DNA from: Carnegiea gigantea
Lineage: Eukaryota > Streptophyta > Magnoliopsida > Caryophyllales > Cactaceae
Length of the DNA: 64,000 nucleotides
Assembly: GCA_029747015.1 (NCBI GenBank)
Contig: JAKOGI010000437.1
Location: 1 to 64,000, forward strand
Reading direction: 5' to 3'
In this document: positions 23,699-64,000 of the stretch, one piece after another
Layout: the number at the start of each line of letters is the position of its first letter
How positions within the stretch are numbered: position 1 is the stretch's first letter
Program-made: the position numbers and the translations under genes
The notes under the pieces: generated by a model
What the model was told of the DNA's origin: nothing
Seen by the model: only the letters and a program-made list of their open reading frames with translations
The model's database searches: none

Positions 23699-34510
<10,812 letters not shown>

Positions 34511-41277: not shown

Positions 41278-41278
41278 C

Positions 41279-44200
41279 CTGTAGTATAAATAAAAGTCAA
41301 CTTGATCATTCTCGACACATTGACAACACAAGATGCAGAACTCATCTACAAGCTCACTATCATTCACAACGGCTGATGGGCCTTGATTGATTTCTAGTAG
41401 ACCAAATAGTATAGTGGTTTGAAACATTGCAGGTACATCATAAATGGGTAGCGATGGTTCTCTGACTATATTTCTTATGAGTTTGCACATGGCTCCTCAA
41501 TCTATTTTTGGCATATAAATGGTAAAATGATATTCAGATGAGAGACCTTCTCCTCCTGTCTATGCACCTGCAGTGAATAGAGATGCAGCTATTTCTGATC
41601 ATTTGTCATGCACTTTTGGCTCTAGCTTCAGTCTCCTGTGTTGCACATGATGCCTTCCTAGACAATTACTAACTTAGTGGTTTGTTTAGCAAGGTCGACG
41701 AACATCCATAAGGAGCTCTCCTCCAGGCATGGTTAGATAAAACCGAATTGTATGAGAAAGTTCGCTTTCAAATGATACTTTCAGAGCTATTAAAGCCTAG
41801 AAGCTCATTTGCTTCTAATGGGTTAGTAGGCAATCAAACTCAGGCTCCTATGAAGCATCCTTTGTTTCCTCTTTATAAAGAGGTAGGCAGTCAATGGTCT
41901 TTAATCTAAGAGTAACCAAATCAACCTATCTGCATTTCACGGGCAAGGCGGCTACATTAATTCGTAACCGGGAAATCTTAATTCGTAACCCGGATTCCGA
42001 ATGCATTTATCACCAGGTATTTTAATACCAATTGGGAGCTCGTCGGGCTTTTCCTCTGCAGATAGATCTTTTAAACCCGTTATGATTTGGGAAAAGTTTT
42101 CTTCGGAAGAAAAGTTCTTAAAAAAAATCATTATGGCTCTAGCTTGAAACATTATTTTTAAATTCTTTGGACGAGGAGCAATGCAGATGTTCCAGTGATA
42201 TAACCACACCTCAAGGAGCAAAAAGGATAAGTCATGCAGACTTTCTGCAAACATACACCTTTATTTTCTTCACTTAAATGAAGTTGATATTATTGGTAGT
42301 CTTTTCCAAATATCAGATTAACTTTTTTCAGGATACGTGCTTGCATCAAAATCTTCAGGTTGATTTAATAAAATGGATCTCTTTATAAGAAAAGAAAAAA
42401 AAGAAGAGATCATATGCACACCATAAATGATGTCACGGACGAGATTACATTATTTATATGCTAAAAACTTCTAAGAATACAACGTAAATGAAGAAAGTGA
42501 GACAGCCATGCTCAGATTTAACCTCCATAATGGCCAGCATCATGGATTTCCTCTGCCTTCAGGGCTTTAAAATAGAAATAAATAATTGTTGAGAAGGCCA
42601 CCCCTCAACATAGGAAAATTTGCACCAAAACTATATTACTAGAAATTCATATCAAATTATTCTATCAAAACACCTCAAGTTTCCTTACAATTAAAAAAAT
42701 ATATATCAAGACATTTTTATTTGCAGAAGTTAGCAAAGACACTGTCTTTGCAAAAATAAAAATATTAGTTTAATGGCACAAATAATGATAAAAGTTACCC
42801 TAATCATCAACCTGCTGCCATGAAAACTGAGCTCAATATTTATTACAATCAAGCACAATCTCATTTTCCATTTTCCAAAACTTAATACCTAAGAAAAGGG
42901 CACCCGGTTAACTGACATTACTTTTCCTTCAAAATGTTCTTTTAGCAGGGGAGGGGGGCTTGATAAAGTTCTACGAATTAACAAAGTCAAAGGAGAGAGA
43001 TAAAAGTCTGCTCCATCACTTTGCTAGAGTGACACAACAGGTCCAGTATTTTAGACTTCTTGTCCCTGAAAGCTATGGCTATACAGGTAGGTTGTGAGCT
43101 TTTTACCACCCCCCACACAAATTAGCTGCTGCTTATCCTACTCTAGTCGGTTGTCCCTGCTCCGCTTATGGGTGAAGCCGTCTGTGGAGGTGCTGGGATC
43201 ACAAGACCTTGGTCTTTAGTTCAGAATTAAGTTGATTTCAGAGGGAGATTAGGGTACTTCTGCTCTGGGCTACAAAGAGTTTTGTCCTGCCCTGCTGTTG
43301 ACCAATTGTGACGAGTGGAAATGCTAGGATCTTTTTCAAGCACAGGGCCAAACCTCTAGAGGCCTAACATCCAAGTGAATTAAGGTACCCTAGAAACCCC
43401 AATCATCGATCAACTAGTCACGTACATAAACTCCTTGAGGCTTCCAATTCCCAATAGTTAAAGCATCAGAACTTCAATGGAGTCTTGAAAGAAAACCACA
43501 TCATAGAGATGTGTCACAGATATGTCTAACTGAATTGCTATTATCCCTACAATCCAAGCTTTGTGGGAAACGATGCGCACACCTATCTCTGCATCATTCC
43601 AAAGTCATAATTAAATTATGTCATGACTAATGATTGATTTTATATCCCAAGTTCTGAAGCGCCTTGTCTTTGTCTTTCTCTCACCCATATTTCAATCCAC
43701 CTTTTCTTAAATACCTTTCTGACAATGTCAACAAATTCAATTTCATTACCCCTTAATAGCAACTTAATCCCCCTCCTCTATTGCCTGTTCTAGTGCTTTC
43801 CGGGTCAATAGATGGAGTTTCTCCCTTCTAAATTCTGTCACATCCACAAATCCCTATGTTTAACTGTATTGTTGGAGTCCAATAATCCTAAAGTGAATGC
43901 TTGAATTGGAGACATTATTATTTTTCATGATTCATGCTTAGAACCACTAACAGGTGGTTTCATTTGATACATAATGCATCTTAACAGCTATTCAAATATT
44001 AAAGCTTATTAGGTGAAAAGCTACAATTCAATTCCCACATACTGAATAATTCATTTGTCCCCACATTGCTAATTGATCACCTAAATCATTTTGTATACTC
44101 AAATGATGTTTACCAATCCTAACAGGAATGAAAAGGAAAGAGCTCGAAAATCCAGATAATCTTCTGTTCATTTACCCTTTCTGATCAATTGGCCACAGTG

Positions 44201-45600: not shown

Positions 45601-46786
45601 AAGAGCAGAAGGAAAGGAAAAAAGCTTTTTAGGTAAATGCAGCTATTGGTCCAACACGCAGAGGGTTATACCTGACTCCAATAAATTTGCCCCATTTTCT
45701 ATATTAAAAAAAAACGTATATATAAATAAATTCGCCAAAAAAATTTTCTTTTTCCTCGGAAAAAATGCCAAATATTTATCGCAAAAGAAAAATAAAGGTC
45801 ACATTTTACAAAAAACACAAAGAAAAATATCATTTAGTACAGTACTCTCTTTAAAAGTGTTACTAAAAAACAAAATTGCCTTTTTAATTTGTGGGCTTAT
45901 TTTTTTCCAACTTATTTTAACTAGTTATTATTAACTTTTAGCATTTGTCAACGCCCATGAGCATTTATCAACATTCATCCGCACTGCTCATCGTTGATCA
46001 ATATTCATCAAGAAATCAATTTGGTAATTATAATTTCTTCAGCATTACTAGCAATAATCACCATTCATTATCGCTCATCAGCATTAGTCAGTAGTAATGA
46101 GCATCGATCGACACTTATCATTATCAACAATACTGATCAACAATAAATTACTTATAATAAAGTTTTAAAAATAGACTCTTACTAACATTGATAATCATTT
46201 TAAGGATTTTTCGACACTCATAATATGAACTATTTGGGTTTAGACATCAATTATCTGATATGGAGAAATAGTTGCGAGCAGTATGACCTTTTGATATATT
46301 TATTTTTAATAGTACATGCATTATTTTAGAATATTTTTTAGGCAATTGAAACTTTCACATGAACGTGTGTGACTTAAATTTCACGTGTTTGTATTATTTT
46401 AAGGGCACTCTCATTTGGAATTATTAGAAAAATACAATATAAAATCACTCTTGTCTGGTACTATTGAAAATAAATATTAAAAAAAGAATAAATCTTTTAA
46501 AACTATTTCTCCATATTAAATTATTGGCATCCAAATTTCAAATAATTTAGTTTGTTGGAATTCAAAACCCAGTATTTTAACGGCAATTTTGGAACATTCT
46601 TAGAAGTAATATTTATCTAGCTTTATGAGAGTGATAGAATATGTAAAAAATAGGATCAATTTTAGAGGAGCAAGGATAGACTTTTCACGATAATTTGAGG
46701 ACATATGACTTATGGTAATAATTTGGCATTGGCACTAATTAAAATGTCAAATGACATACTTGTCCTTCAATATATACACATAGACA
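45601..46786. other. Pur-alpha 1 upstream region and viral flank
   Basis: Likely promoter. A CCAAT motif lies near 45640-45650 (minus strand). A loose array of CATT(C/T)ATCA and its variants fills about 45950-46140. AT-rich DNA leads to the TIR at 46787. No gene. Confidence 0.4.
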
Positions 46787-46852
46787 AGGGGTGGCAAAAT
46801 GCACAAATCCGTACAACAAAGACAAAAAAGTTTTGTTTTTTAGCGTTAAAGT
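46787..46852 (+). repeat. Left 66-bp terminal inverted repeat flanking the viral palindrome
   Basis: It begins AGGGGTGGCAAAATGCACAA and ends AGCGTTAAAGT. It pairs with 62496-62561 at 63 of 66 positions by eye. The start resembles hAT or Mutator-type TIRs. ACATAG lies just outside both ends (46778-46783 and 62564-62569), possibly part of a decayed target-site duplication. Confidence 0.75.
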
Positions 46853-46913
46853 GACAAAGGTGCTTGCAAATTTTAAAATTGTTTTGTAAACTTCTATATG
46901 GTGTTGGTTCTAA

Positions 46914-47273
46914 TTATTCTTCTTCGTCAAATGGCTTGAAGATTTGATGGTTGTTCATATTCATATTAAGATTCTACCATATAGTGTATTCAAAAGTTTT
47001 TTCTAATAATGCAATATTATCTTTTATTAAGTTTATTGTTATAGAATGGACTAGTTCAGTTATAGTTAATAAATAGTTTAACCTGTTTTTATATTGATTT
47101 AATAAGTTTTGTCTAATACTTCTGGATGTTAAATTAAAAGATCTTAGATAATCCCATACTCTTTCTTGCGTATATTAGTGTAGTTCTGGAAGATTAAAAG
47201 TTTGTCCAGCTACATAATTTCCGTCTTTGTCTATCTTAGAGTTTGATTGTAATTTGTTTTTAAATAAATTCAT
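46914..47273 (-). pseudogene. EPRV left arm ORF-A (119 codons)
   Basis: The first ORF after the primer-binding site. A TAA within the YAQER neighbourhood interrupts it where the right arm has a tyrosine codon. Its right-arm counterpart (62074-62433) has the same 360-nt length. It has no motif I recognise. Its position matches the small leader-proximal ORF of caulimovirids. Confidence 0.6.
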
Positions 47274-47319
47274 TGTTTAAGAGTGACCCTATAGTTGTAC
47301 TTACTTTGTTCAAGGTCTA

Positions 47320-47332
47320 GACTCTGATACCA
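47320..47332 (-). promoter_or_regulatory. EPRV left arm primer-binding site (tRNA-iMet)
   Basis: TGGTATCAGAGTC on the minus strand matches the initiator-methionine tRNA 3' end complement used by caulimovirids, with the last bases drifting. It starts minus-strand DNA synthesis from the pregenomic RNA. Confidence 0.85.
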
Positions 47333-47814
47333 TTTTATAGAAGTCGAGTGGTTTTTATGAAAAAATCGATAAAACCATTGGTTGAATTAGTTAGGTGATT
47401 CACACAAAGAGATTTATCAAATTTTAACAACGGTACTCGGATACTAGATTATCAGATGAAACTTTAAACTTAATGTCAGATAATCCTATTAAAACAAGAT
47501 TGAATTAAAGAAATTATACCTTCAAGAGTTGGATCTGTCTTACTCCTTCGCGCTCGTCTTACTCCATCCTGATGTGAGACTTACCTACTCGTTCAGACCT
47601 TCTCCTTCTCTTTGATAGTATTTTCTCTTTGATCAAAGTTGTAATCACATTATTATAGACACAAAGTTTTGAAAAAAGATTTCTCTTTTTATTTCATTGA
47701 TAATTGTTCTCCTTTCCCTAAAGGGAGGAAATCATAACATTTTTTGAGAGATTTCTTACAAAGAGATTATTTTACTTACAAAATGCCGATGCCCTCTACT
47801 GAAATCGGCTAACT

Positions 47815-47822
47815 TATTTATA
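47815..47822 (-). promoter_or_regulatory. EPRV left arm promoter TATA box
   Basis: TATAAATA on the minus strand, preceded by an as-1-like TGATGTAAGCGCATATGTCA region just upstream (about 47840-47865). It would fire leftward, through ORF-A, the TIR and on toward Pur-alpha 1. An AATAAA lies about 130 bp downstream, as in the right arm. Confidence 0.75.
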
Positions 47823-48016
47823 GGGGATGGGAGTGCGCTATGACATATGCGCTTACATCATCAGAAATCTAAAAAGATAAGATTACAAGCTAAAGGATGA
47901 GCTTTGTAGATAAGGTTTTCACTGTTCTTGATAAGGTTGCTGCATGTTCATCGTCTTATTGTGTCGACAAAGATAAGAGTTGATAAGGTTGTGGCCCCTT
48001 GTATCTCATATAATGA

Positions 48017-49138
48017 CTAGGTGAGAATCTGCTTCTGCATTTTGTCTCGTTCTTCTTTATAAAGTTCAGCAAATTTGGTGCATATAGCTGGACTTCCTAG
48101 AAATTTTTTGGACTCCAGTGCATAGGTAAAGTCAAAAAGTTGTTCATCGACTGAGATGTTTTCAGCTCCTTCAGTTGTGACTAGAATTAGATTTTCGTCA
48201 GAGTAAAGAGTTCTGGCTCCTTTAGTCATTAGTCGCTCGCTTTGGCATTTGATGGTGAGAGCGCCTGTTGAACGTCTATAATTGATCCATCCTTTGTCAA
48301 AATGTGGAGTTTTGTAGTGTTTGTTTTTCTCTGCTGCAATTGTGGGGAGTTTTGTAGCTGTTCTAGCTCTGGTAACATGGGTGACTTCAACTAAATGAAT
48401 GGAAGGGTAAATGGTGTCCTCATCCTTTTCAGGAGAGATGGTAAAAATACGAAGACAAATATATTCTTGTTGACTATATTGCTTAATAGCATATTTAAAA
48501 TTGGCTGGGAAATGTTGTAGTTCAATAAGACTGAGGCTTGGGTACAGATAATTTAAATGTCCATACTTAAAGAGTTCAAAAACGATATCAGGGTTGGCTC
48601 TGGTGAAAGCAAGGATTCTGGGAAAAAGAGAGTCTCTTGGGTTGTAGTAGAGTTCAGGTAAACTAGAGATCTTCTAGTAAGCAAGCACTGTAGCTTCATA
48701 ATAGTTCTTGTAAAAAGAGTCCGATACATCAAGAGTTCGAATGCCAGTATTTTGAATAACTGGTCTTGAAGCTAATAGCTTAGCTTTTAGTTGTTGCTTC
48801 TCTTTCTCTTCTTCAGAGAGGGGGTTTGAAGCGTTTTCCTGATTTGGTCGAAATGACAATTCAGAGAGTTCAGAGCGGACTTTCGTCAAATCGACCTTTG
48901 GAGAGTTCAAAGAGTTCGATTTGAGCTGTTCAATAGTTCGATGGAAATATGTTGTTAGCTCTCGAGCTTTTCCAAGATCAGCTCTGAGGTCAACAACAAT
49001 TTCTTCAATAACTTCAATTTTCTCATTAACAGCTTCACAGTATTCATTAACATTTATAAGAATGTCTTCAAAGTTCTGGATTAGCTGGGTGCTATCCACT
49101 TGTTCTATTGGTGCTTTGTCTTTACTCATTGAACTCAT
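48017..49138 (-). pseudogene. EPRV left arm 3' ORF (position of TAV/inclusion-body protein), 373 codons
   Basis: Starts 17 nt before the RT ORF ends. The N-terminal third is predicted coiled coil (VNEYCEAVNEKIEVIEEIV). The rest has LPELYYNPRDS and KKFLGSPAICTKFAELY. A TAG near 48674 splits it where the right arm has CAG. In caulimovirids the ORF here encodes the translation transactivator that permits polycistronic translation. I assign that role by position only; I see no diagnostic TAV motif. Confidence 0.65.
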
Positions 49139-51001
49139 GTTCTCTTGTTAAATAGTCTGTAATAAAATTGTTTTTACCTGCAACATGCTCATACACAGCA
49201 TTAAACTGAGATAAAAATAGCTGCCATCGATGTAATTTACACATGTGAGGTCCATTGTCTAAAGCTTATTTTACGAAAGTAGTTGCTGCTTGATTATCTG
49301 TTAATACCTTAAATGGTTTAGGGAGCAAAAAGAGTCTCCATTTAGTAATTCCCCTAATAATCACTAATAGTTCATTTTCCATAGTATTATAATTTTCTTC
49401 TCGTTCAGAAAAAGTTTCACTGTGATAACCACAAATTTCATTTAAATATGTCCTTAAAACTGCTGCCCATGTTTTATCAGATGCGTCTGTTTGAAGAATT
49501 AAGTTGTCTTCAGGTTCAGGGAGTCTAAGACTGGGAAGTTGTTGACATTCTTCTTTTAGTTTCTTCACAATTTCAGTATGTTTTTCTGTGCAACCAAGAG
49601 TGTTATTTTTTCTAAGTAGACTTTGCAAATCTTTTTTCTTTTTTGCTAAGTCTGGGATATAAGAGCTTGCATAGTTTAATAGTCCTAAGAAACCTTGAAT
49701 TTGTTTCTTTGTTCTCAGTTGGTTTGGATACTCCATAATTTTTCTAGAGATATGAGGTTGTAAGCTGATTCCGTTTGTACCAACTTCAAATCCTAAGAAT
49801 TCAATTTTCTCTTTTTCAATTACAGCTTTTTTCTCACTTAAGCAAATGCCTTCTTTAATAGCTGTTTCCAGAAATGTGTTGAGATGTATTCGATGTTCTT
49901 CAAGAGTGTCTGAACTTATTAAAATGTCATCTAATACACGACAAGAAAACTGTTAAGGTGTTTAAAGGCATCGTCCATTCTTCGTTGAAAAATTCTTGGT
50001 GCATTTTTTAGTCCAAATGGCATAACAAGCCATTCATAAAATCCTTGAGGTGTACTAAAATCTGTATATTTAATACTTATTTCTCCCATTTTAATTTGCC
50101 AAAAGCCAGATTTGCAATCAAATTTTGAGAAGAATTTTCTATTTTTTTCAAGGTTAAGTAATACTTCTTTGTTGGGTAAGAAATAGTTATCTGTTTTTGT
50201 AAACTAATTTAGCTTTTTATGGTTGATAACCGTTCGGGCTTTGCCTCTTCGACGTTCTGCTTCATTAACTACCATAAAAGCTGGTGAAGAGTATGCTCCA
50301 TTTGAGGGTCTAATTAGTCCTTTTTCATATAATTCTTTTATTTGTATAGAGAATTCTCTAATGTCTTCTTCAGAGTATAGCATTGGTTTTTCTCTGATAT
50401 AAATTTCCTGTGTCAGTTCTATCTCAGCTCGACGATGTTCAGGTTTCCAAAATTGTAATGAATTTTCAGAACAAATTTGTTTGAATTTTGCTAAAAGGTC
50501 ATCTCTTTTAATTATACGGACTGTAAATATAGGTTTTTGTGTTTGTATTTGAAGTGCTATGTGTTCATATCCATGTCCCCCACGCTTCACGCGTACTCTA
50601 TAGGGTTGTTTTAGAGTGGGAATTTTCAAAGTATAACCACATTTTGTAGTTAAATAGACAGTACAAGGGGTTTGTGTAAACTTAGCAAACTGTTTTAAGA
50701 AGTCATTTCTGAGGAGAATATCATAACCAGAATTATATTGTAATACAGTGGGTATAGTAAGGATTTTGTTACCTAAAATAATGCAAACATTGTTTTGAAC
50801 CAAGTCTAAATAGGTAGGAATGGGATAAACACCTTTGATTCGAATTTTACGATCATTTGGGAGTTTATCCCAATGTGGAAGTAAAAATTCTTGAAAGAAA
50901 GTTACTTCAGATCCGGTATCAATTAAAGCAGTGGTAGTGATATCTAATTCTTTGACAGTTACATCTATATATGTAAGAATCGGTACTTCAAGTTGCTTCA
51001 T
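49122..51001 (-). pseudogene. EPRV left arm protease 2, reverse transcriptase, RNase H
   Basis: The ORF begins in an ATGA overlap with the upstream protease. Domains in order: retropepsin (DTG at 50920-50912, later ILLRNDFL); RT with KFDCKSGFWQI and VMPFGLKNAPRIFQR; RNase H with TDASDKTWAA, MENELL and TDNQAA, all three acidic residues present. Lesions: TAG at about 50202 (CAG in the other arm) and a one-base deletion at about 49933 inside the catalytic Y-V-D-D codons, which shifts the frame. In a virus this protein processes the polyprotein, copies RNA to DNA and removes RNA. Confidence 0.9.
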
Positions 51002-52284
51002 ATTCTTTCAAGAATAATGGTAGTGTGTTGATTTACAAGAGTTATATGAGTAAGACCAATTTCATAGTTTGTATATTGGTCTAGGAAATTCATTCCTAAG
51101 AGTATATGATAAAAGTCATTCTTGATTGAGTGATCAATATAGCAATCAAATTCTAATAAAGTGGCATTAGGAGTTTTCATCATTATTTTAGAAATTTGAT
51201 TTAGAGTTGCTTTCTGACCATTATAAGTGACAAAGTTATATTCTGACGCTGTAGAGACTGATATAGGCAAAGGTATGCAATGGCTTTGAGATGCTCCAGT
51301 ATCTATCAGGATTTTATTAGAGATCCAAGTTTGTCCATTAAAATAGTCCAATTTTACTTTCTAGGTACTACTTTGAGTATTCGTTAGAGAAGGAGGTTTT
51401 GATCTAGGGATTGTACTATAGCTTTGTTTTAGAATGGGTTGATTCGCTATTTGTATTCCTTTTTCAGTATAAGAGAGTCTCGGTGCTTGATAGCTAGTTG
51501 ATGCTTTATCTTCTTCGACTAATTGAAAGTCTATTAATGCGGGTATTTTAGCTTCTTGCATAGGGGGAGAGATTATGGAGCTGATGGTTGAAAAAATTAG
51601 ATCGACAGTTATTTTTCCTATTTGTTTTACATCTTTGATAGGAAAGTTAGTATTGGAAAAAATGTATAAACCTCTATAATAAAAGGATAATGCATCATTT
51701 CCTGGTTGTAATTCGATATCTGTTAAAAGTTTAAATTGCAAATTTAAGGTGTCTTCTATATTTTTGCTTTGTAGAGTTACCGAGTAATTCGGGTAGCATT
51801 CAAAAATTAATTTTTTGTAAATTAGATTTCCTTGTAGTGTTCCTAGATGACTGTTCTGAATATTTCGAAATCTTTGATCATGTAGAGATAGAATTATAGG
51901 TGAGTCGATGCCTTCTTTGAAGCATGCGTTTACAGCAATTTGTATTCCTTGTAAATGGACATACTTAATTAATTTTCTGCCTTTAGAGGGAATTTCTACT
52001 AAAAATTTATCAATTATCTCTTGAGTCATTAATCTTAATCGGATATTTCCCTGTAAATGTTGAATTTTAATAGGTTGTTCTGTAGTATAGAACTTAAAAT
52101 ATCTTATTAATTTTCGAGTTAGAAGATCATCTAGTTTTTTCATAAAATTTCGAGGATCTTTGAGAGATAACTCAGTTGCTATAATTTTTTTATAAAGTTT
52201 TTGGTTGAAAGTAATTATTCCAGTATAATTTTCATGATTTTCTTGTTCTTGTTGTTGGATAATTTCTGTTTCTTCAGTATTCAT
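50998..52284 (-). pseudogene. EPRV left arm movement protein with protease 1
   Basis: The first 307 codons are a 30K-superfamily movement protein (ITFNQKLY, GIQIAVNACFKEGIDSPI), which in the family opens plasmodesmata for cell-to-cell spread. A TAG at 51363-51361 ends it. The frame continues without a shift into a retropepsin domain (DTGAS at 51303-51289, LLGMNFLDQY) to 50998. The right arm has a tyrosine codon at the TAG, so I infer one fused ORF. Read-through of a native stop is the alternative. Confidence 0.85.
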
Positions 52285-53764
52285 CTTCCGTATCTGAGGA
52301 ACTTTCTATTTCTGATGTACTTGTTTCATCTTCTGAGCTAATAGATTCATAGCAACTCGAAATTGCTTCATGTATGTTAGTGGTTATTGGATAAAGTTCA
52401 TCTTGAATTTCTTCAAATTCTTCTGAAAAGAGTTTTACTATATTTGCTTTTCTTTTGTTACAATCAATAGATTTGTGTCCTATTTCTCCACAATTCCAAC
52501 ATTGACAAGCAGTAGGTTTTTTATTTCTTTTGTAATATCTATTATGGGAGTTAAAGTTTTCTTGAGTTAAACTTTCGTGTCGAAAATGTTTACTACTTTT
52601 TTGTGATTTATTTACTGATTTTTCAGTCTTTACCTTTTCAGTTTTTGTTTTCTTAGATGGAAGTTTCTTTTTCTTAGAAAATTTTTTCTTTGGAGTTTTT
52701 CTAGGAATAGTTTTCTTGGTATATTGTTTTGGAGTTCTCTTTCGTTTTGGCCGAAAATTTGGATAATTTTCACATCCATATTGTCCTGGTTCTTTTATAT
52801 CTTCACAGCAAAGAGTTACTTCTTTAATATATCTTCTTCGACTTTCTTGGAAACAAAGGTCCATCATTTCTTTATTGATTAGAGATTGAACTGCAGCTAC
52901 TGATCTAAAGATAGTAGGATGTTTTGCGTAAACTTCAAATTTATCCGAAAAATATTTATTCTATGGATGAGGAAATTTATTTAATAGTAGTTGAATATAG
53001 GGTTCTTGACTTTCTGTAGAATCATAAAGTTCGTAATAGTATTTGTCAAATTCACAAAAGAAACTTTTATAGTTGCATAAGTTACAAATTCTTAAATTAG
53101 TTAATTTGTACAAAGCTTCCTTTTTTCCTTCTAGTCTATTTGATTCTGGGTTTTCAATAAATTCATACCCTTGAAATTATCCTATTAAATATTTTTCAAA
53201 GGTCCAAACACCATGCTTAATAGATATTCCCAAGTTTCATTTTACATCTACTTCTATTATATTTCTTAGTGCTGGAGATGATCCACTATACCAATTTAGT
53301 ACAATTCCTTGTAAAGAGTAAATTATTAAATTATAGATCGCATTAATATCTCTAGCTTCCGCAGCATAAGTTGGTTCTTGCATTAAAGATAATATTATTG
53401 AGGTTCTCCAAGTGTCCAAAGCTGCTCTTTTATCTGTTACACAATCTATATTTAGAAAATATTCCCATGCAGGTACTGGTTCTAACAGCAAAAGATTTTT
53501 TTGTTTAAATTCTTCATTGATATATCTTTTTCTTATTGGAGGTCTTCTTTTGTTTTGAAAGTTATCTGTATGTTTATTCTTATGGATTGACTCAGTTCTG
53601 AAGGGACTAGAAGGTTCTCTAGTTTCATAATTATTTGGATTATTACTTCCTACACTTCTTGTAGTTGTTCCTGCTTGCATATTAACCTGTTTAACTAGTT
53701 CAGTTAATTGTAGGTTTTCAAAGTCATTTAACAATTCTTCAATAGCTTTATTGTATCCTCCCAT
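52274..53764 (-). pseudogene. EPRV left arm coat protein (496 codons)
   Basis: Domains: Asn/Ser-rich N terminus, conserved core (DINAIYNLIIYSLQGIVLNW), basic Lys-rich tract and a CCHC zinc knuckle (CWNCGEIGHKSIDC, intact in this arm), then an acidic tail. It packages the genome. Stops: TGA near 53237, a TAA about 50 nt later, and TAG at 52963-52961 (codon 268). The last is shared with the right arm. The end overlaps the movement-protein start by 11 nt. Confidence 0.88.
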
Positions 53765-54093
53765 TATTGGCTACTCTCTGCTTCTTCTTGTTTTTCTTTA
53801 GCTTTAAGCAGTCGTCTTTCTTCAATAGTCTTTTGAATAACTTCTTCGTGTTCCCTTAAAATGTTATTTTGATAACGTTCAATATATTTAGCATCATCAC
53901 TGTTGGGATTGACCTTATCGGGAAGTTTAATTTCTATTGGAGTATATTCTCTTTTTTGTTTTGATTTTAACATTCCTTCAAAAGTTAAATTTATAAGTTG
54001 TATCTGTATTACTAATTGTTTAATAGAGTTACTTATTTCTCTAATTTCTTCTTTCACAGCCTTTAGTTCGTTTTCTAGTTGTGGAAAGCTCAT
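53764..54093 (-). CDS. EPRV left arm 109-aa coiled-coil protein
   Basis: Intact. The N-terminal half has heptad-like spacing (LENELKAVKEEIREISNSIK) and the C terminus is charged. Its stop shares one base with the coat-protein ATG. By size, coiled coil and position it resembles the virion-associated proteins of caulimovirids; that is inference. Confidence 0.7.
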   Translation of the reverse strand: MSFPQLENELKAVKEEIREISNSIKQLVIQIQLINLTFEGMLKSKQKREYTPIEIKLPDKVNPNSDDAKYIERYQNNILREHEEVIQKTIEERRLLKAKEKQEEAESSQ

Positions 54094-54099
54094 TGTTTA

Positions 54100-54411
54100 T
54101 TAATCTTCATCATTAAACCAAAATTCTGTATCAAATTGATCTAAGTTGTTATCATCATTGTTGTCTGTATTTTCACAAATTTCTAAATACGTTCTTCTCT
54201 CTTCTTCGTAAAATAAGAGATCTAGTCTATCTTCATTTAACCAAATTATTTCTTTTGAGACATTATTTTTTCTTAGTTGTTCAATTTTTTGTATATAAAA
54301 TTTTTCTTTTTGTAATATTTCTTTTTTAGAAAAAGTTTTATATAAGTTGAGAACAGATTCATAATTTGTTTGAGTCATTATTTTGAGTTTGGGCATTTCG
54401 GGTTTTTCCAT
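54100..54411 (-). CDS. EPRV left arm 103-aa protein
   Basis: Intact. Acidic C terminus (NTDNNDDNNLDQFDTEFWFN). Function unknown. It sits 6 nt upstream of the 109-aa ORF and differs from the right-arm copy at very few residues. Confidence 0.65.
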   Translation of the reverse strand: MEKPEMPKLKIMTQTNYESVLNLYKTFSKKEILQKEKFYIQKIEQLRKNNVSKEIIWLNEDRLDLLFYEEERRTYLEICENTDNNDDNNLDQFDTEFWFNDED

Positions 54412-54425
54412 TTTGCTAGAAAATG

Positions 54426-54676
54426 TTACTCAATTAAATAAATTTTTATAAGTCGGTTGAGTATAATTATTATTTTTCCTTCAAAAAATAAACAGTTATT
54501 TTTGTTTTGACATAAATATTTTAATAGTTGTAACATATCTGTGTCCCCATACATTCCTTCATCTAATTCACGCTCAAATGCCTGAAAATTCAGCAGCACA
54601 GTGTTGTGATAATTCAGCAGCACAGTGTTGTGAAAAAGACGCTTTTGTTCTTTAGCAACCCAAATTTTCCAAAATT
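54426..54676 (-). pseudogene. EPRV left arm ORF-B, truncated at the centre
   Basis: Codes for FERELDEGMYG and LLKYLCQNKNNCLFF-type sequence of unknown function and ends at 54426. Near the palindrome centre it has a 24-bp tandem duplication (about 54586-54633) that the right arm lacks. The 5' end is cut by the junction. Confidence 0.6.
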
Positions 54677-54696
54677 ACTAGAAGGACTAGCAAAGC
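54677..54696. other. 20-bp loop between the two viral arms
   Basis: ACTAGAAGGACTAGCAAAGC separates perfectly inverted sequence on each side (AATTTTGGAAAATTTGGG and its complement). The loop reads as a continuation of the right-arm virus, so the left arm ends about 20 bp shorter. Confidence 0.9.
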
Positions 54697-54923
54697 AATT
54701 TTGGAAAATTTGGGTTGCTAAAGAACAAAAGCGTCTTTTTCACAACACTGTGTTGCTGAATTATCAGGCATTTGAGCGTGAATTAGATGAAGGAATGTAT
54801 GGGCACACAGATATGTTACAACTATTAAAATATTTATGTCAAAACAAAAATAACTGTTTATTTTTTGAAGGAAAAATAATAATTATACTCAACCGACTTA
54901 TAAAAATCTATTTAATTGAGTAA
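54697..54923 (+). pseudogene. EPRV right arm ORF-B, 5' truncated
   Basis: Open to the TGA-side stop at 54923 and similar to the left copy. The longer frame from 54606 begins in antisense left-arm sequence and is an artefact of the palindrome. Confidence 0.6.
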
Positions 54924-54937
54924 AATTTTCTCGCAAA

Positions 54938-55249
54938 ATGGAAAAACCCGAAATACCCAAACTCAAAATAATGACTCAAACAAATTATGAATCTGTTCTC
55001 AACTTATATAAAACTTTTTCTAAAAAAGAAATATTACAAAAAGAAAAATTTTATATACAAAAAATTGAACAACTAAGAAAAAATAATGTCTCAAAAGAAA
55101 TAATTTGGTTAAATGAAGATAGACTAGATCTCTTATTTTACGAAGAAGAGAGAAGAACGTATTTAGAAATTTGTGAAAATACAGACAACAACGATGATAA
55201 CAACTTAGATCAATTTGATACAGAATTTTGGTTTAATGATAAAGATTAA
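54938..55249 (+). CDS. EPRV right arm 103-aa protein
   Basis: Intact counterpart of 54100-54411, with only a couple of residue differences by eye. Function unknown; acidic end. Confidence 0.65.
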   Translation: MEKPEIPKLKIMTQTNYESVLNLYKTFSKKEILQKEKFYIQKIEQLRKNNVSKEIIWLNEDRLDLLFYEEERRTYLEICENTDNNDDNNLDQFDTEFWFNDKD

Positions 55250-55255
55250 TAAACA

Positions 55256-55585
55256 ATGAGCTTTCCACAACTAGAAAACGAACTAAAGGCTGTGAAAGAA
55301 GAAATTAGAGAAATAAGTAACTCTATTAAACAATTAGTAATACAGATACAACTTATAAATTTAACTTTTGAAGGAATGTTAAAACCAAAACAAAAAAGAG
55401 AATATATTCCAATAGAAATTAAACTTCCCAATAAGGTCAATCCCAACAATGATGATGCTAAATATATTAAACGTTATCAAAATAACATTTTAAGGGAACA
55501 AGAAGAAGTCATTCAAAAGACTATTGAAGAAAGACGACTGCTTAAAGCTAAAGAAAAACAAGAAGAAGCGGAGAGTAGCCAATAA
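55256..55585 (+). CDS. EPRV right arm 109-aa coiled-coil protein
   Basis: Intact counterpart of 53764-54093. The stop overlaps the coat-protein ATG by one base (TAATG). Virion-associated role inferred only. Confidence 0.7.
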   Translation: MSFPQLENELKAVKEEIREISNSIKQLVIQIQLINLTFEGMLKPKQKREYIPIEIKLPNKVNPNNDDAKYIKRYQNNILREQEEVIQKTIEERRLLKAKEKQEEAESSQ

Positions 55586-57075
55586 TGGGAGAATATAATA
55601 AAGCTATTGAACAATTGTTAAATGACTTTGAAAACCTACAATTAACTGAACTAGTTAAACAGGTTAATATGCAAGCAGGAACACCCACAGGAAGTGTAGG
55701 AAGTAATAATTCAAATAATTATGAAACTAGAGAATCTTCTAATCCCTTCAGAACTGAGTCAATCCATAAGAATAAACATATAGATAGCTTTCAAAACAAG
55801 AGAAGACCTCCAATAAGAAAAAGATATATCAATGAAGAATTTAAACAAAAAAATCCTTTGCTGTTAGAACCAGTACCTGTATGGGGATATTTTCTAAATA
55901 TAAATTGTGTAACAGACAAAAGAGCAGCTTTGAACACTTGGAGAACCTCAATAATATTATCTTTAATGCAAGAACTAACTTATACTGCGGAAGATAGAGA
56001 TATTAATGCGATCTATAATTTAATAATTTACTCTTTACAAGGAATTGTACTAAATTGGTATAGTGGATTATCTCCAGCACTAAGAAATATAATAGAAGTA
56101 GATGTAAAACGAAACTTGGGAATATCTATTGAGCATGGTGTTTGGACTTTTGAAAAATATTTAATAGGACAATTTCAAGGGTATGAATTTATTGAAAACC
56201 CAGAATTAAATAGACTAGAAGGAAAAAAGGAAGCTTTGTACAAATTAACTAATTTAAGAATTTGTAACTTATGCAACTACAAAAGTTTCTTTTGTGAATT
56301 TGACAAATACTATTACGAACTTTATGATTCTACAGAAAGTCAAGAACCCTATATTCAACTACTATTAAATAAATTTCCTCATCCATAGAATAAATATTTT
56401 TTAGATAAATTTGAAGTTTACGCAAAACATCCTACTATCTTTAGATCAGTAGCTGCAGTTCAATCTCTAATCAACAAAGAAATGATGGACCTTTGTTTAC
56501 AAGAAAGTCAAAGAAGATATATTAAAGAAGTAACTCTTTGCTATGAAGATATAAAAGAACCAGGACAATATGGATATGAAAATTATCCAGATTTTCGGCC
56601 AAAACGAAAGAGAACTCCAAAACAATATACCAAGAAAACTATTCCTAGAAAAACTCCAAAGAAAAAATTTTCTAAGAAAAAGAAACTTCCATCTAAGAAA
56701 ACAAAAACTGAAAAGGCAAAGACTAAAAAATCAGTAAATAAACCACAAAAAAGTAGTAAACATTTTCGACACGAAAGTTTAACTCAAGAAAACTTTAACC
56801 CCCATAATAGATATTACAAAAGAAATAAAAAACCTACTGCTTGTCAATGTTGGAATTATGGAGAAATATGACACAAATCTATTGACTGTAACAAAAGAAA
56901 AGCAAATATAGTAAAACTCTTTTCAGAAGAATTTGAAGAAATTCAAGATGAACTTTATCCAATAACCACTAACATACATGAAGCAATTTCGAGTTGCTAT
57001 GAATCTATTAGCTCAGAAGATGAAATAAGTACATCAGAAATAGAAAGTTCCTCAAATACGGAAGATGAATACTGA
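55585..57075 (+). pseudogene. EPRV right arm coat protein
   Basis: Same 1491-nt length as the left copy. TAG at 56386-56388 (codon 268) is shared with the left arm. A private TGA near 56869 and a Cys-to-Tyr change (CWNYGEI) destroy the zinc knuckle. The core and basic tract are otherwise kept. Confidence 0.88.
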
Positions 57076-58348
57076 AGAAACAGAAATTATCCAACAACAA
57101 GAACAAGAAAATCATGAAAATTATACTGGAATAATTACTTTCAACCAAAAACTTTATGAAAAAATTATAGCAATTGAGTTATCTCTTAAAGATCCTCGAA
57201 ATTTTATGAAAAAACTAGATGATCTTCTAATTCAAAAATTAATAAGATATTTTAAGCTCTATACTATAGAACAACCTGTTAAAATTCAACATTTACAGGG
57301 AAATATCCGATTAAGATTAATGACTTAAGAGATAATTGATAAATTTTTAGCAGAAATTCCATCTAAAGACAGAAAATTAATTAAGTATGTTCATTTGCAA
57401 GGAATACAAATTGCTGTAAACGCATGCTTCAAAGAAGGTATCGACTCACCTATAATTCTATCTCTACATGATCAAAGATTTCGAAATATTCAGAATAGTC
57501 ATCTAGGAACACTACAAGGAAATCTAATTTACAAAAAATTAATTTTTGAATGCTACCCGAATTACTCGGTAACTCTACAAAGCAAAAATATAGAAGACAC
57601 CTTAAATTTGCAATTTAAACTTTTAACAGATATCGAATTACAACCAGAAAATGATGCATTATCCTTTTATTATAGAGGTTTATACATTTTTTCCAATACT
57701 AACTTTACTATCAAAGATGTAAAACAAACAGGAAAAATAACTGTCGATCCAATTTTTTTAACCATCAGCTCCATAATCTCTCCCCCTATGCAAGAAGCTA
57801 AAATACCGGCATTAACAGACTTTCAATAGTCGAAGAAGATAAAGCATCAACTAGCTATCAAGCACCGAGACTCTTATACTGAAAAAGGAATACAAATAGC
57901 GAATCAACCCATTCTAAAACGAAGCTATAGTACAATCCCTAGATCAAAACCCCCTTTTCTAACGAATACTCAAAGTAGTACCTACAAAGTAAAATTAGAC
58001 TATTTTAATGGACAAACTTGGATCTCTAATGAAATCCTGATAGATACTGGAGCATCTCAAAGCCATTGCATACCTTTGCCCATATCAGTCTCTACAGTGT
58101 CAGAATATAACTTTGTCACCTATAATGGTCAGAAAGCAACTCTAAATCAAATCTCTAAAATAATGATGAAAACTCCTAATGCCACTTTATTAGAATTTGA
58201 TTGCTATATTGGTCACTCAATCAAGAATGACTTTTATCATATACTCTTAGGAATGAATTTCCTAGACCAATATACAAACTATGAAATTGGTCCTACTCAT
58301 ATAACTCTTGTAAATCAACACACTACCATTATTCTTGAAAGAATATGA
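57065..58348 (+). pseudogene. EPRV right arm movement protein with protease 1
   Basis: Interrupted by TAA at 57326-57328, then by a one-base and a nearby two-base deletion (about 57827-57875) that together restore the frame. The boundary to the retropepsin domain (DTG at 58043-58051) is open in this arm, supporting a fused movement-protease ORF. Confidence 0.85.
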
Positions 58349-60232
58349 AGTAACTTGAAGTACCGATTCTTACATATATAGATGTAACTGTCAAAGAATT
58401 AGATATCACTACCACTGCTTTAATTGATACCGGATCTGAAGTAACTTTCTTTCAAAACTTTTTACTTCCACATTGGGATAAACTCCCAAATAATCGTAAA
58501 ATTCGAATCAAAGGTGTTCATCCCATTCCTACCTATTTAGACTTGGTTCAAAACAATGTTTCCATTATTTTAGGTAACAAAATTCTTACTATACCCACTG
58601 TGTTACAATATAATTCTGGTTATGATATTCTCCTTGGAAATGACTTCTTAAAACAGTTTGCTAAGTTTACACAAACCCCTTATACTGTCTATTTAACTAC
58701 AAAATGTGGTCATACTTTGAAAATTCCCACTCTAAAAGAACCCTATAGAGTACGCGCAAAGCGTGGTGGACATGGATATGAACACATAGCACTTCAAATA
58801 CAAACACAAAAACCTATATTTACAGTCCGTATAATTAAAAGAGATGACCTTTTAGCAAAACTCAAACAAATTTGTTCTGAAAATCCATTACAATTTTGGA
58901 AACCTGAACTTTGTCGAGCTAAGATAGAACTGACACAGGAAATTTATATCAAAGAAAAACCAATGCTATACTCTGAAGAAGACATTAGAGAATTCTCTAT
59001 ACAAATAAAAGAATTACTCGAAAAAGGACTAATTAGACCCTCCAATGGAGCATACTCTTCACTAGCTTTTATGGTAGTTAATGAAGCAGAGCGTCGAAGA
59101 GGCAAAGCCCGAATGGTTATCAACTATAAAAAGCTAAATCAGTTTACAAAAACAGATAACTATTTCTTACCCAACAAAGAAGTATTACTTAACCTTGTAA
59201 AAAATAGAAAATTCTTCTCAAAATTTGATTGCAAATCTGGCTTTTGGCAAATTAAAATGGAAGAAATAAGTATTAAATATACAGGTTTTAGTACACTTCA
59301 AGGATTTTATAAATGACTTGTTATGCCATTTGGACTAAAAAAATGCACCAAGAATTTTTCAACGAAGAATGGACAATACCTTTAAACACCTTAACAGTTT
59401 TCTTGTCGTGTATGTAGATGACATTTTAATAAGTTCAGACACTCTTGAAGAATATCGAATACATCTCAACACATTTCTGGAAACAGCTATTAAAGAAGGC
59501 ATTTGCTTGAGTGAGAAAAGAGCTGTAATTGAAAAAGAGAAAATTGAATTCTTAGGATTTGAAGTTGGTACAAACGGAATCAGCTTACAACCTCACATCT
59601 CTAGAAAAATTATGGAGTATCCAGACCAACTGAGAACAAAGAAACAAATTCAAGGTTTCTCAGGACTATTAAACTATGCGAGCTCTTATATCCCAGACTT
59701 AGCAAAAAAGAAAAAAGATTTGCAAAGTCTACTCAGAAAAAATAACACTCTTGGTTGGACAGAAAAACATACTGAAATTGTGAAGAAACTAAAAGAAGAA
59801 TGTTAACAACTTCTCAGTCTTGGACTCCCTGAACCTGAAGACAACTTAATTCTTCAAACAGACGCATCTGATAAAACATGGGCAGCAGTTTTAAGGACAG
59901 ATTTAAATGAAATTTGTGGTTATCACAGTGGAACTTTTTCTGAACGAGAAGAAAATTATAATACTATGAAAAAGGAACTATTAGCGATTATTAGGGGAAT
60001 TACTAAATGGAGACTCTTTTTGCTCCCTAAACCATTTAAGATATTAATAGATAATCAAGCAGCAACTACTTTCGTAAAACAAGCTTTAGACAATGGACCT
60101 CACATACGTAAATTACATCGATGGTAGCTATTTTTATCTCAGTTTAATGCTGTGTATGAGCATGTTGCAGGTAAAAATAATTTTATTATAGACCATTTAA
60201 CAAGAGAACATGAGTTCAACGAGCAAAGATAA
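58345..60232 (+). pseudogene. EPRV right arm protease 2, reverse transcriptase, RNase H
   Basis: TAA is the third codon (58351-58353). The retropepsin DTG (58426-58434) and DILLGNDFL are kept. TGA at 59314-59316 precedes the MPFGL block, and an extra A in the run at about 59337-59343 shifts the frame. The YVDD codons (59411-59422) are intact here. TAA at 59804-59806 and a later TAG at about 60125 break RNase H, and its glutamate region reads MKKELL. Confidence 0.9.
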
Positions 60233-61331
60233 AGCACCAATAGAACAAGTGGATAGCACCTAGCTAATCTAGAACTTTGAAGACATTCTTATAAATATTA
60301 ATGAATACTGTGAAGCTGTTAATGAGAAAATTGAAGTTATTGAAGAAATTGTTTTTGACCTCAGAGATGATCTTGGAAAAGCTTGAGAGCTAACAACATA
60401 TTTCCATCGAACTATTGAACAGCTCAAATTGAACTCTTTGAACTCTCCAAAGGTGGATTTGACGAAAGTCCGCTCTGAACTCTCTGAACTATCATTTCGA
60501 CCAAATTAGGGAAACGCTTCAAACCCCCTCTGTGAAAAAGAGAAAGAGAAGCAACAACTAAAAGCTAAGCTATTAGCTTCAAGACCAGTTATTCAAAATA
60601 CTGACATTCGAACTCTTGATCTATCAGTCTCTTTTTACAAGAACTATTATGAAGCTACAGTGCTTGCTTACCAGAAGATCTCTGGCTTACCTGAACTCTA
60701 CTACAACCCAAGAGACTCTCTTTTTCCCAGAATCCTTACTTTCACCAGAGCCAACCCTGATATCGTTTTTGAACTCTTTAAGTATGGATATTTAAATTAT
60801 CTGTATCCAAGCCTCAGTCTTATTGAACTACAACATTTCCCAGCCAATTTTAAATATGCTATTAAGCAATATAGTCAACAAGAATATATTTGTCTTCGTA
60901 TTTTTACCATCTCTCCTGAAAAGGATGAGGACACCATTTACCCTTCCATTCATTTAGTTGAAATCACCCATGTTACCAGAGTTAGAACAGCTACAAAACT
61001 CCCCACCATTGCAGCAGAGAAAAACAAACCCTACAAAACTCCACATTTTGACAAAGGATGGATCAATTATAGACGTTCAACCGGTGCTCTCGCCATCAAA
61101 TGCCAAAGCGAGCGACTAATGACTAAAGGAGCTAGAACTCTTTACTCTGACGAAGATCTAATTCTAGTCACAACTGAAGGAGCTGAAAACATCTCAGTCG
61201 ATGAACAACTTTTTGACTTTAGCTATGCACTGGAGCCCAAAAAATTTCTAGGAAGTCCAGCTGTATGCACCAAATTTGTTGAACTTTATAAAGAAGAATA
61301 AGACAAAATGCAGAAGCAGATTCTCACCTAG
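60210..61331 (+). pseudogene. EPRV right arm 3' ORF (TAV position), 373 codons
   Basis: Overlaps the RT ORF by 23 nt and has the same length as the left copy. Several stops lie in the first 115 codons. 60660-61301 is open for 213 codons. TAA at 61300-61302 replaces CGA of the left arm, a change at both bases of a CpG. Confidence 0.65.
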
Positions 61332-61525
61332 TCATTATATGAGACACAAGGGGCCACAACCTTATCAACTCTTATCTCTGTCGACACAACAAGACGATGA
61401 ACATGCAGCAGCCTTATCAAGAACAGTGAAAACCTTATCTACAAAGCTCATCCTTTAGCTTGTAATCTTATCTTTTTAGATTTCTGATGATGTAAGCGCA
61501 TATGTCATAGCGCACCCCCATCCCC

Positions 61526-61533
61526 TATAAATA
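61526..61533 (+). promoter_or_regulatory. EPRV right arm promoter TATA box
   Basis: TATAAATA with an as-1-like TGATGTAAGCGCATATGTCA about 20-40 bp upstream, the arrangement of caulimovirid full-length transcript promoters. It points right, out of the palindrome. Confidence 0.75.
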
Positions 61534-61653
61534 AGTTAGCCGATTTTAGTAGAGGGTATCGGCATTTTGTAAGTAAAAAATCTCTTTGTAAGAAATCTCT
61601 CAAAAAATGTTCTGATTTCCTCCCTTTAGGGAAAGGAGAACAATTATCAATGA

Positions 61654-61659
61654 AATAAA
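61654..61659 (+). terminator. EPRV right arm poly(A) signal
   Basis: AATAAA lies about 125 bp after the TATA box. In this family the signal is passed once and used on the second pass around the circular template. Confidence 0.65.
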
Positions 61660-62014
61660 AAGAGAAATCTTTTCTCAAAACTTTGTGTCTATAATGCTAT
61701 TATTACAACTTTGATCAAAGAGAAAATACTATCAAAGAGAAGGAGAAGGTCTGAACGAGTAGGTAAGTCTCGCATCAGGATGGAATAAGACGAGCGCGAA
61801 GGAGTAAGACAGGTCCAACTCTTGAAGGTATAATTTCTTTGATTCAATCTTGTTTTAATAGGATTATCTGACACTAAATTTAAAGTTTCATCTGATAATC
61901 TAATATCCGAGTACCGTTGTTAAAATTTGATAAATCTCTTTGTGTGAATCACCTAACTAATTCAACCAATAGTTTTACTGATTTTTTAATAAAAACCACT
62001 CGACTTCTATAAAA

Positions 62015-62027
62015 TGGTATCAGAGTC
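62015..62027 (+). promoter_or_regulatory. EPRV right arm primer-binding site (tRNA-iMet)
   Basis: TGGTATCAGAGTC, same as in the left arm, at the end of an approximately 450-nt leader and 47 nt before the ORF-A ATG. Confidence 0.87.
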
Positions 62028-62073
62028 TAGACCTTGAACAAAGTAAGTACAACTATAGGGTCACTCTTAAACA

Positions 62074-62433
62074 ATGAATTTATTTAAAAATAAATTACAA
62101 TCAAACTCTAAGATGGACAAAGACGGAAATTATGTAGTTGGACAAACTTTTAATCTTCCAGAACTACACTACTATGCGCAAGAAAGAGCATGAGATTATT
62201 TAAGATCTTTTGATTTAACATCTAGAAGTATTAGACAAAACTTATTAAATCACTATAAAAGCAGGTTAAACTATTTATTAACTATACCTGAACGAGTTCA
62301 TCCCATAACAATAAACTTAATAAAAGATAATATTGCATCATTAGAAAAAACTTTTGAATACACTGTATGGTATCAGCCTAATATGAATATTAGCCGCTCT
62401 CAAATTATACACGATACCGACGAAGACGAATAA
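62074..62433 (+). pseudogene. EPRV right arm ORF-A (119 codons)
   Basis: A TGA at codon 40 stands where the left arm has TGG. Otherwise open to TAA. The acidic end reads DTDEDE. Unknown function. Confidence 0.6.
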
Positions 62434-62495
62434 TTAGAGCCAACACCATAGAGAAGTTTGCAAAACAATTTTAAAATTTGGACGGTACGTTAGTA

Positions 62496-62561
62496 ACTTT
62501 AACGGTAAAAAACAAAACTTTTTTGTCTTCGTTGTCCGGATTTGTGCATTTTGCCACCCCT
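62496..62561 (-). repeat. Right 66-bp terminal inverted repeat
   Basis: The inverted partner of 46787-46852, with three differences by eye. Between it and viral sequence lies about 15 bp (62481-62495) that does not match the corresponding left spacer, so the TIR and viral homology blocks are separate. Confidence 0.75.
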
Positions 62562-64000
62562 AAACATAGTAATTTGGTTGTCTGCCTAACTGTAAATAGG
62601 AACCCGACGAGTAATGGATGCTCAGTTCCATATATATTAAACAATTTTAAAACATTTAAAAAATAATACTCTATACATAGTTAAACCGCATACATATTGA
62701 TCACTTACAAACCATAGCGCACAACTTTTTATTCCTGTAAGTGGTTGTTGTAAATTAGAGACGACGTTGTCGCTGACTATCCACGATTAAGCCTGGGTAA
62801 TGTTAAATGTCGTTGAAGTCGTGCCAGTTCAAATGTCATTGAACTTTTATCATTATATGTTTTTTTAAGTTTTTTCAAGTTTTTTCTTTTTTTTTTGGTA
62901 ACAAATTTCCTTCATCTATCAGCTTCCTATTGCGTAATTTATGCTTCAAATGTCCATTAGCATAAAAAAATAATAATAAATTAATTGCTCAAAATCCTAG
63001 TTGATAATCTCAAATGCTATTCAATACTCTCAAACGATATTAAACTCTCCCAAACTCTCTCAAACACTGCGAATTGCTAAGCTTTAAACTTAACCATGGC
63101 TAAATGCTAGGCTTAACTACTAAAATGAGCACAACATCAAGGACATTCACGAGAGAAAATATTTGTAAATTTTACAGGACGAAGAAAACATGAAGAGGAT
63201 CCATACCAAAGGAGAATAAAAAGAAAGAAACATTAGTCTTACACAAATTTTCTCATATAGAAGTAACGGCTTAGACTATACTCAAAATAAGTTGGTGACT
63301 AACTCCTAACTTAAAAATATTGTTTGGATAACAAAACATTTGGATAATTGGGTGGGGGGAAGGGGGGGACCTTTATCAAGACCTAACTCTCAAAAATTTG
63401 AAATGTCGAAATCAATATAGTCTATGCAAACTATTTTTTAAAATAAGAAAATAACATCCTGTCACCAATAGTATTTGCAATTAGAAAAAAAATCCTGTCA
63501 CCAATAGTATTTGCAATTGTCTACATTTTTGGTTCACCATCATGGGCCCAAGTGATATCCTTATCCTTATATCTATTTTTTAAAACCTAATAAGGGGAGT
63601 TATTATTGAAAAAAATCCTTTCTGATCTCCTAAGGTTTGATATAATTATTTACTGATCTCACGTTTCTTGAAAAATATTTTTGGGACTCCTAAATTTAGT
63701 GTAAATGCTTTTTGGGGTGCAACCCTTTACGTTGAATGATTTCTCAGTGATAAATATTTTTTATGAACTAGAATTTTATAAAATTTCTACTTTTCACCGA
63801 CATAGGGTTCAAAGTGCAAATACTCAAATTTTTGGGCTTTTTTTACAAAACTAAGCTTATATTAATATTTGAACTTCTTATAATGACTTTACTGGTATTA
63901 GTTATCACAATCTACTACTTATATCATAAATATTATATTTTCTATAGTTCGAGATCCACCATGCTTATCAAAATATTCAAAGCTTAATTAGAAGATTTTA
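62562..64000. other. No gene seen; right flank
   Basis: AT-rich host DNA. A 41-bp direct duplication (ATCCTGTCACCAATAGTATT at about 63449 and 63490) and a G-run near 63352-63369 are the only structures. Confidence 0.4.

What the first reader, a model, noticed from the sequence alone, without database searches (positions are those of the whole stretch)
46867..62480. Two full-length pararetrovirus genomes as a head-to-head palindrome with a 20-bp loop
Seen: two colinear viral copies of about 7.8 kb on opposite strands, mirrored about 54677-54696, with matching ORF lengths. Known: caulimovirids have no integrase, and EPRV loci are often rearranged. Inference: any host transcript crossing the locus would fold into a very long hairpin and could feed 21-24 nt siRNAs against related virus, so this could act as a heritable antiviral locus.
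Basis: partly seen in the sequence, partly recalled or inferred. Interest (0 to 1): 0.9.

Follow-up and report, generated by a model that had tools for sequence, protein, structure and literature searches.

The report
Palindromic fossil plant virus pair
A plant chromosome carries two mirror-image copies of a decayed DNA virus fused near their starts, an arrangement already reported in cotton; it could in principle make a hairpin RNA, but whether it does cannot be told from sequence alone.

Summary
The palindrome is real and slightly longer than reported: 46787-62561, arms of 7.89 and 7.87 kb, 280 mismatches in 7862 aligned columns (3.6%), 20-bp spacer. Both arms are decayed Caulimoviridae: CCHC capsid-type ORF, movement protein, aspartic protease, RT, RNase H, Met-tRNA primer site, TATA box. 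The host looks like a Caryophyllales plant. Apart from one 320-bp patch, arm differences carry no codon-position signal, so the arms appear to descend from one viral sequence and to have diverged as non-coding DNA. Both copies are opened within the same ~30 bp of the viral circle, and the symmetry seems to run ~66 bp past the virus, which favours inverted (fold-back) copying over joining of two genomes. By the usual caulimovirid layout the viral promoters point outward in both arms, so they would not transcribe the hairpin; that needs a host transcript entering from a flank. A head-to-head full-size pair of ~15 kb is published in cotton, and inverted-repeat EPRVs feeding 22-nt siRNAs in tomato. 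This is a new example of a known kind; the antiviral function is neither shown nor excluded.

The parts
46787..54676 (-). Left arm: decayed unit-length caulimovirid copy, viral sense leftward from the centre (outer ~80 bp probably not viral)
   Evidence: blastn self-hit, Pfam on ORF pieces, arm alignment
54677..54696 (.). 20-bp spacer between the arms; seems to continue the right copy (with it, the right start resembles the arm ends) and holds CTAG-AAGGA-CTAG
   Evidence: sequence; overlap alignment
54697..62561 (+). Right arm: decayed unit-length caulimovirid copy, viral sense rightward from the centre (outer ~80 bp probably not viral)
55579..57075 (+). Capsid-type region of the right arm, interrupted; left counterpart about 52274-53770 (-) with CCHC zinc knuckle
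   Evidence: ORFs; zf-CCHC E=3.5e-4 in left piece 52277-52960
57329..57829 (+). Movement protein piece, right arm; left counterpart 51361-52305 (-), where the MP domain is open
   Evidence: Pfam MP E=1e-24 and 1.6e-29
57830..58348 (+). First aspartic-protease-like domain (DTGAS); left counterpart 50998-51360 (-)
   Evidence: PF13975 E=0.0035 and 8.8e-4, below the curated cut-off; translation
58354..59316 (+). Second protease (Peptidase_A3, DTGS) and start of RT, right arm; left counterpart 50204-51007 (-, protease)
   Evidence: PF02160 E=4.9e-15, RVT_1 6.5e-8; PF02160 8.2e-13; translation
59339..60127 (+). RT and RNase H pieces, right arm; left counterpart 49266-49952 (-)
   Evidence: RVT_1 4.5e-13; RT_RNaseH 2.5e-20; left RT_RNaseH_2 9.4e-20
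60510..61301 (+). ORF in the usual transactivator position, right arm; left counterpart 48017-49147 (-); no family match above cut-off
61526..61531 (+). TATA box of the right viral promoter, pointing outward; left one starts at 47822 (-). A second TATA-like match per arm lies just before the primer site (62008; 47339)
61654..61659 (+). AATAAA after the TATA box, right arm (another at 61988); left at 47693 (-)
62015..62026 (+). Met-tRNA primer binding site, 1 mismatch to TGGTATCAGAGC, right arm
   Evidence: motif alone is not above chance: 5 matches found, 3.75 expected; position and context support it
47321..47332 (-). Met-tRNA primer binding site, left arm
62159..62482 (+). Patch where the arms differ by 13.0% (42 of 323) against 3.1% inside; left counterpart about 46865-47188
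62496..62561 (.). Outermost 66 bp, mirrored by 46787-46852 at 95.5%; apparently not viral: co-duplicated flank or transposon-like end
46778..46783 (+). ACATAG just outside the left end, also at 62564-62569 outside the right end; not in register as a clean target-site duplication
   Evidence: 87 of 5000 random pairs of 12-mers share a word as long

Best explanation
One caulimovirid genome, opened about 0.5 kb downstream of its primer binding site, was captured in a plant chromosome (no integrase; break repair is the usual explanation) and exists as an inverted duplicate because one copy was copied in mirror image. The likely route is fold-back priming at a broken end, whose tip remains as the 20-bp spacer. 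Both copies then decayed as silent DNA. Shown: the palindrome, the caulimovirid identity, the broken ORFs, the lack of coding constraint in the interior differences, the outward order of promoter signals. Inferred: the fold-back step and its timing. No present function is needed to explain the locus.
For: Interior differences spread over codon positions 55/57/42; 31 of 139 single-change codons are synonymous against 38.8 +- 5.1 expected without selection (1557 codons). C/T-type differences per site are commonest at CG (7.6%) and CHG (6.1%) against CHH (3.7%), as expected of methylated DNA. Both copies begin and end within about the same 30 bp of the viral circle. Symmetry continues ~66 bp beyond the point where the arm stops resembling the viral continuation. 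The tip carries CTAG-AAGGA-CTAG.
Against: The outer 66 bp could be viral after all: no related genome was found to settle it. The overlap test is modest (5 and 9 of 500 shuffles) and two of its four pairings gave no signal. The 320-bp patch at 13% (26 mismatches in the densest 100 columns, 0 of 2000 random placements reach this), with a third-position excess (20 of 44 against 42 of 154, p=0.027), is not simple neutral decay and suggests sequence from another viral lineage in one arm. Arm-to-arm gene conversion could have erased an older difference. Interior mismatches are somewhat clumped (variance/mean 1.5, permutation 0.029). Two CTAG words so close can be chance; no control was run.
Confidence: 0.6

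Rival explanations
1. Two separate viral DNA molecules of one strain were joined head-to-head, as a concatemer, and inserted together.
For: Review PMC10377300 names concatemer integration as a source of multicopy EPRVs (section 12). The spacer is asymmetric, as expected of an end-joining seam. Neutral differences fit two copies of the same strain as well.
Against: Needs inner and outer ends of both molecules at the same viral site, and does not explain symmetric, apparently non-viral 66-bp ends.
Confidence: 0.25
2. The palindrome works as a heritable antiviral locus: a host transcript crossing it folds into a hairpin that Dicer-like enzymes cut into 21-24 nt siRNAs against related virus.
For: Hairpin geometry with long perfect stretches; published precedent for inverted-repeat EPRVs and 22-nt siRNAs in tomato (review passage).
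Against: Viral promoter signals face outward; inward AATAAA signals lie close to each edge; no relative in four scans of viral contigs. Inward host promoters, transcripts and small RNAs were not examined, so this is weak evidence.
Confidence: 0.1
3. Assembly artefact: two unlinked viral copies, or a fold-back read, joined by the assembler.
For: Palindromes are a known trouble spot (recalled); no reads could be seen.
Against: 280 differences and unrelated flanks speak against a simple fold-back read; a comparable cotton locus is reported in all 12 G. hirsutum datasets that its authors analysed.
Confidence: 0.05

Closest known systems
eCPRVE locus on chromosome A04 of upland cotton (PMC10458927; passages and sections 13 and 14 read)
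   Same: About 15 kb, two full-size caulimovirid copies on opposite strands, head-to-head, both with interrupted ORFs, slightly different from each other.
   Different: Cotton copies 98.98% identical against 96.4% of aligned bases here; the cotton locus is delimited by Met-tRNA primer sites, this one ends ~0.55 kb beyond them; different host order; genus not compared.
Rearranged inverted-repeat EPRVs of tomato (TSAs) with 22-nt siRNAs (Valli et al. 2023, seen only through passages of review PMC10377300)
   Same: EPRV-derived inverted repeat that could form hairpin RNA.
   Different: siRNAs were measured there, not here.
Endogenous banana streak virus loci with inverted pieces (review PMC10377300, passages)
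   Same: Viral pieces in opposite orientation in a plant chromosome.
   Different: Those are called replication-competent; here the capsid-type and polymerase ORFs are interrupted in both arms.
Dioscorea nummularia-associated virus (PMC6135502, passages)
   Same: Unit of ~8 kb, TATA and poly(A) signals upstream of a Met-tRNA primer site, two small ORFs before the large ones.
   Different: One polyprotein with MP ahead of CP; here the CCHC capsid-type ORF precedes an MP-protease-RT region, and two protease-like domains lie in a row.

Membership tests
Endogenous caulimovirid (EPRV) | Caulimovirid MP, aspartic protease, RT, RNase H | tested here: met
   Pfam matches above cut-off in pieces of the arms
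Endogenous caulimovirid (EPRV) | No integrase | tested here: met
   No integrase domain among the 24 viral ORF pieces scanned; not every short ORF was scanned
Endogenous caulimovirid (EPRV) | Met-tRNA primer site downstream of TATA and AATAAA | tested here: met
   both arms (not independent of each other)
Endogenous caulimovirid (EPRV) | Embedded in host chromosome | tested here: met
   Host-type genes in the same window: RING protein, EF-hand protein, kinase piece, PurA
A named Caulimoviridae genus | RT phylogeny with reference genera | not tested
   No relative came from the collection scanned; broken RT not joined
Head-to-head full-length EPRV pair (cotton eCPRVE type) | Two near-complete copies, opposite strands, head-to-head | tested here: met
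   compared
siRNA-producing inverted-repeat EPRV (TSA) | Inverted-repeat conformation | tested here: met
siRNA-producing inverted-repeat EPRV (TSA) | Transcribed, dense 22-nt siRNAs | not testable with these tools
   No RNA data
TIR DNA transposon (hAT-like) | Terminal inverted repeats | tested here: inconclusive
   66 bp at 95.5%; no other full copy in the window, though the 15-base end motif has 5 further matches with 3 mismatches (7 in all, 1.4 expected; 1 of 100 shuffles reaches 7); hAT likeness of AGGGGTGG is recalled
TIR DNA transposon (hAT-like) | 8-bp target-site duplication in register | tested here: not met
   Only ACATAG shared, out of register

The most novel reading that the evidence does not exclude
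The mirrored 66-bp ends are transposon termini, so that a whole viral palindrome has become a TIR-bounded element that host transposase could move, giving an integrase-less virus a way to spread in the genome.
Probability: 0.05. Interest if true: 0.75.

Novelty: new member of a known kind. Interest (0 to 1): 0.33.

Why it matters
It adds another plant lineage to the published head-to-head EPRV pair of cotton, which suggests that inverted full-length pairs recur. It also makes a point that bears on the siRNA idea: in a head-to-head pair the viral promoters face outward, so hairpin RNA depends on host transcription into the locus, which small-RNA and long-read RNA data could test directly.

Tried and rejected
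Search for relatives of MP and RT in viral contigs: 0 of 4 scans gave a relative, so genus and the exact viral map stay open. Protein searches found 6 MP and 26 RT relatives, without names given by their sources. The genome search 'own' did not complete in 8 tries of the same request, so copy number, an empty site and other copies of the 66-bp ends were not tested. Valli et al. is not held. A fold of the first protease-like domain was too poor to use (pLDDT 41.5), and a PDB sequence search with it gave nothing. Rfam at gathering thresholds found nothing in 46000-64000. The idea that the arms are two different viral strains over their whole length was rejected for the interior on codon positions but not for the 320-bp patch. 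In one search one segment (54948-55322) was put in the wrong frame; one search repeats the test without it. Dates from substitution rates were left out, because the rates would be recalled and methylation and gene conversion bias them. TATA and AATAAA positions, and AATAAA counts, have no chance control.

Full report
Observation. The window compared with itself has one long inverted pair, 46787-62561, at 96.0%. Aligned arm to arm (7890 and 7865 bp) there are 280 mismatches in 7862 columns (3.56%), 216 transitions and 64 transversions, and seven gaps, the largest a 24-bp repeat unit near the centre. The spacer is 54677-54696.

Identity. Pieces of both arms match Pfam models of the viral movement protein, Peptidase_A3, reverse transcriptase and RNase H, and the left arm a zinc knuckle. 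From the centre outward the order is: end of ORF1, two small ORFs (109 and 110 aa in both arms), the capsid-type ORF with CCHC, movement protein, a first protease-like domain, Peptidase_A3, RT, RNase H, an ORF in transactivator position without family match, then a TATA box, AATAAA, the Met-tRNA primer site and the start of ORF1. The capsid-type and polymerase ORFs are interrupted in both arms, partly at different places; the MP domain itself is open in the left arm. Relatives of 64-93% identity exist among proteins that bear no source name (6 MP rows; 23 of 26 RT rows; the other 3 RT rows are 30-36% identical).

Host. The RING protein at 15125-16675 has its best named relatives in Beta, Chenopodium, Spinacia, Saponaria and other Caryophyllales (57% and less), with closer unnamed proteins at 96, 91 and 66% (120 of 545 rows listed). 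The species is not known. The nearest host gene recognised on the left is a PurA gene on the minus strand with a match at 40963-41496, more than 5 kb from the palindrome; not every flanking ORF was searched.

One sequence or two. In 1557 codons read in the frame of whichever arm is open, differences fall 55/57/42 on positions 1/2/3. Of 139 single-change codons 31 are synonymous; 38.8 +- 5.1 are expected if changes are placed at random. There is thus no trace of protein selection between the arms, which favours divergence after the virus was silent DNA. C/T-type differences per site are higher at CG and CHG than at CHH. Gene conversion between the arms could give the same picture and is not excluded; divergence rises weakly from centre to edge (rank correlation 0.36, p=0.052).

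The patch. Columns 7490-7813 (62159-62482 and 46865-47188) differ at 42 of 323 sites, 13.0%, against 230 of 7460, 3.1%, inside (Fisher p=6e-14); the last 57 columns differ at 3 sites. No random placement in 2000 gives as dense a cluster. Codon position 3 is over-represented in outer ORF1 (20 of 44) compared with the interior (42 of 154; p=0.027), although its synonymous count is at expectation (7 against 7.2). I read it as sequence from another viral lineage in one arm, by ectopic conversion or by recombination before integration. This remains unexplained in detail.

The ends. The right copy's start, spacer included, resembles both arm ends over about 30 bp (5 and 9 of 500 shuffles reach the scores), while the same test with the left start gives nothing (171 and 73 of 500). 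So each copy seems to be about one genome unit, opened near the same site. Beyond that overlap the arm ends do not continue like the virus, yet 66 bp stay mirrored at 95.5%. This suggests that flank or transposon DNA was duplicated with the virus; without a related genome it stays an inference. The 6-bp word ACATAG lies just outside each end but out of register; 87 of 5000 random pairs share a word as long. The 15-base end motif AGGGGTGGCAAAATG occurs exactly only at the two ends; five further matches with three mismatches make 7 where 1.4 are expected (1 of 100 shuffles reaches 7).

How it works. TATA, AATAAA and primer site lie near the outer edges in the usual viral order and face outward (only the viral-sense strand was scanned for TATA). 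Viral promoters would therefore give two transcripts of the same viral sense leading into the flanks, not a hairpin. A hairpin needs a host promoter reading inward; I did not search the flanks for one. In that sense AATAAA occurs about 281 and 477 bp inside each edge. If such a transcript exists, its arms contain a 236-bp perfect run and 3321 perfect 24-nt windows of 7870, ample for Dicer-like enzymes (established knowledge, recalled).

What is known. A ~15-kb locus of two full-size head-to-head copies, 98.98% identical, is described in upland cotton (PMC10458927: passages and sections 13 and 14); its authors leave transcription of it open, and the words siRNA, small RNA, hairpin and silencing had no occurrence in its main text. 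The siRNA role of inverted-repeat EPRVs is summarised in PMC10377300 (passages and sections 3 and 12). One paper search for 'endogenous caulimovirid' with 'head-to-head' gave nothing; one with 'pararetrovirus' found the cotton paper. The finding is thus a new member of a known kind.

Noticed in passing
51001-51360 (-), 57830-58345 (+) and 58354-58713 (+): Two aspartic-protease-like domains in a row between movement protein and RT, each with DTG(A/S) and an ILLG-type motif; the first is below the Pfam cut-off, the two share 9 of 19 residues in the best stretch, and a relative (P0001) has the movement protein and first domain in one frame. One paper search found no caulimovirid paper on it.
   Followed up: partly
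54583-54636: A 24-bp unit is present in 2.2 copies in the left arm and the right arm lacks one unit.
   Followed up: no
25324-26157: AT-rich tandem array, unit about 88 bp, roughly 9 copies.
   Followed up: no
37908-38547 (-): ORFs that look like a decayed LINE-type retrotransposon (recalled likeness, no family search run).
   Followed up: no
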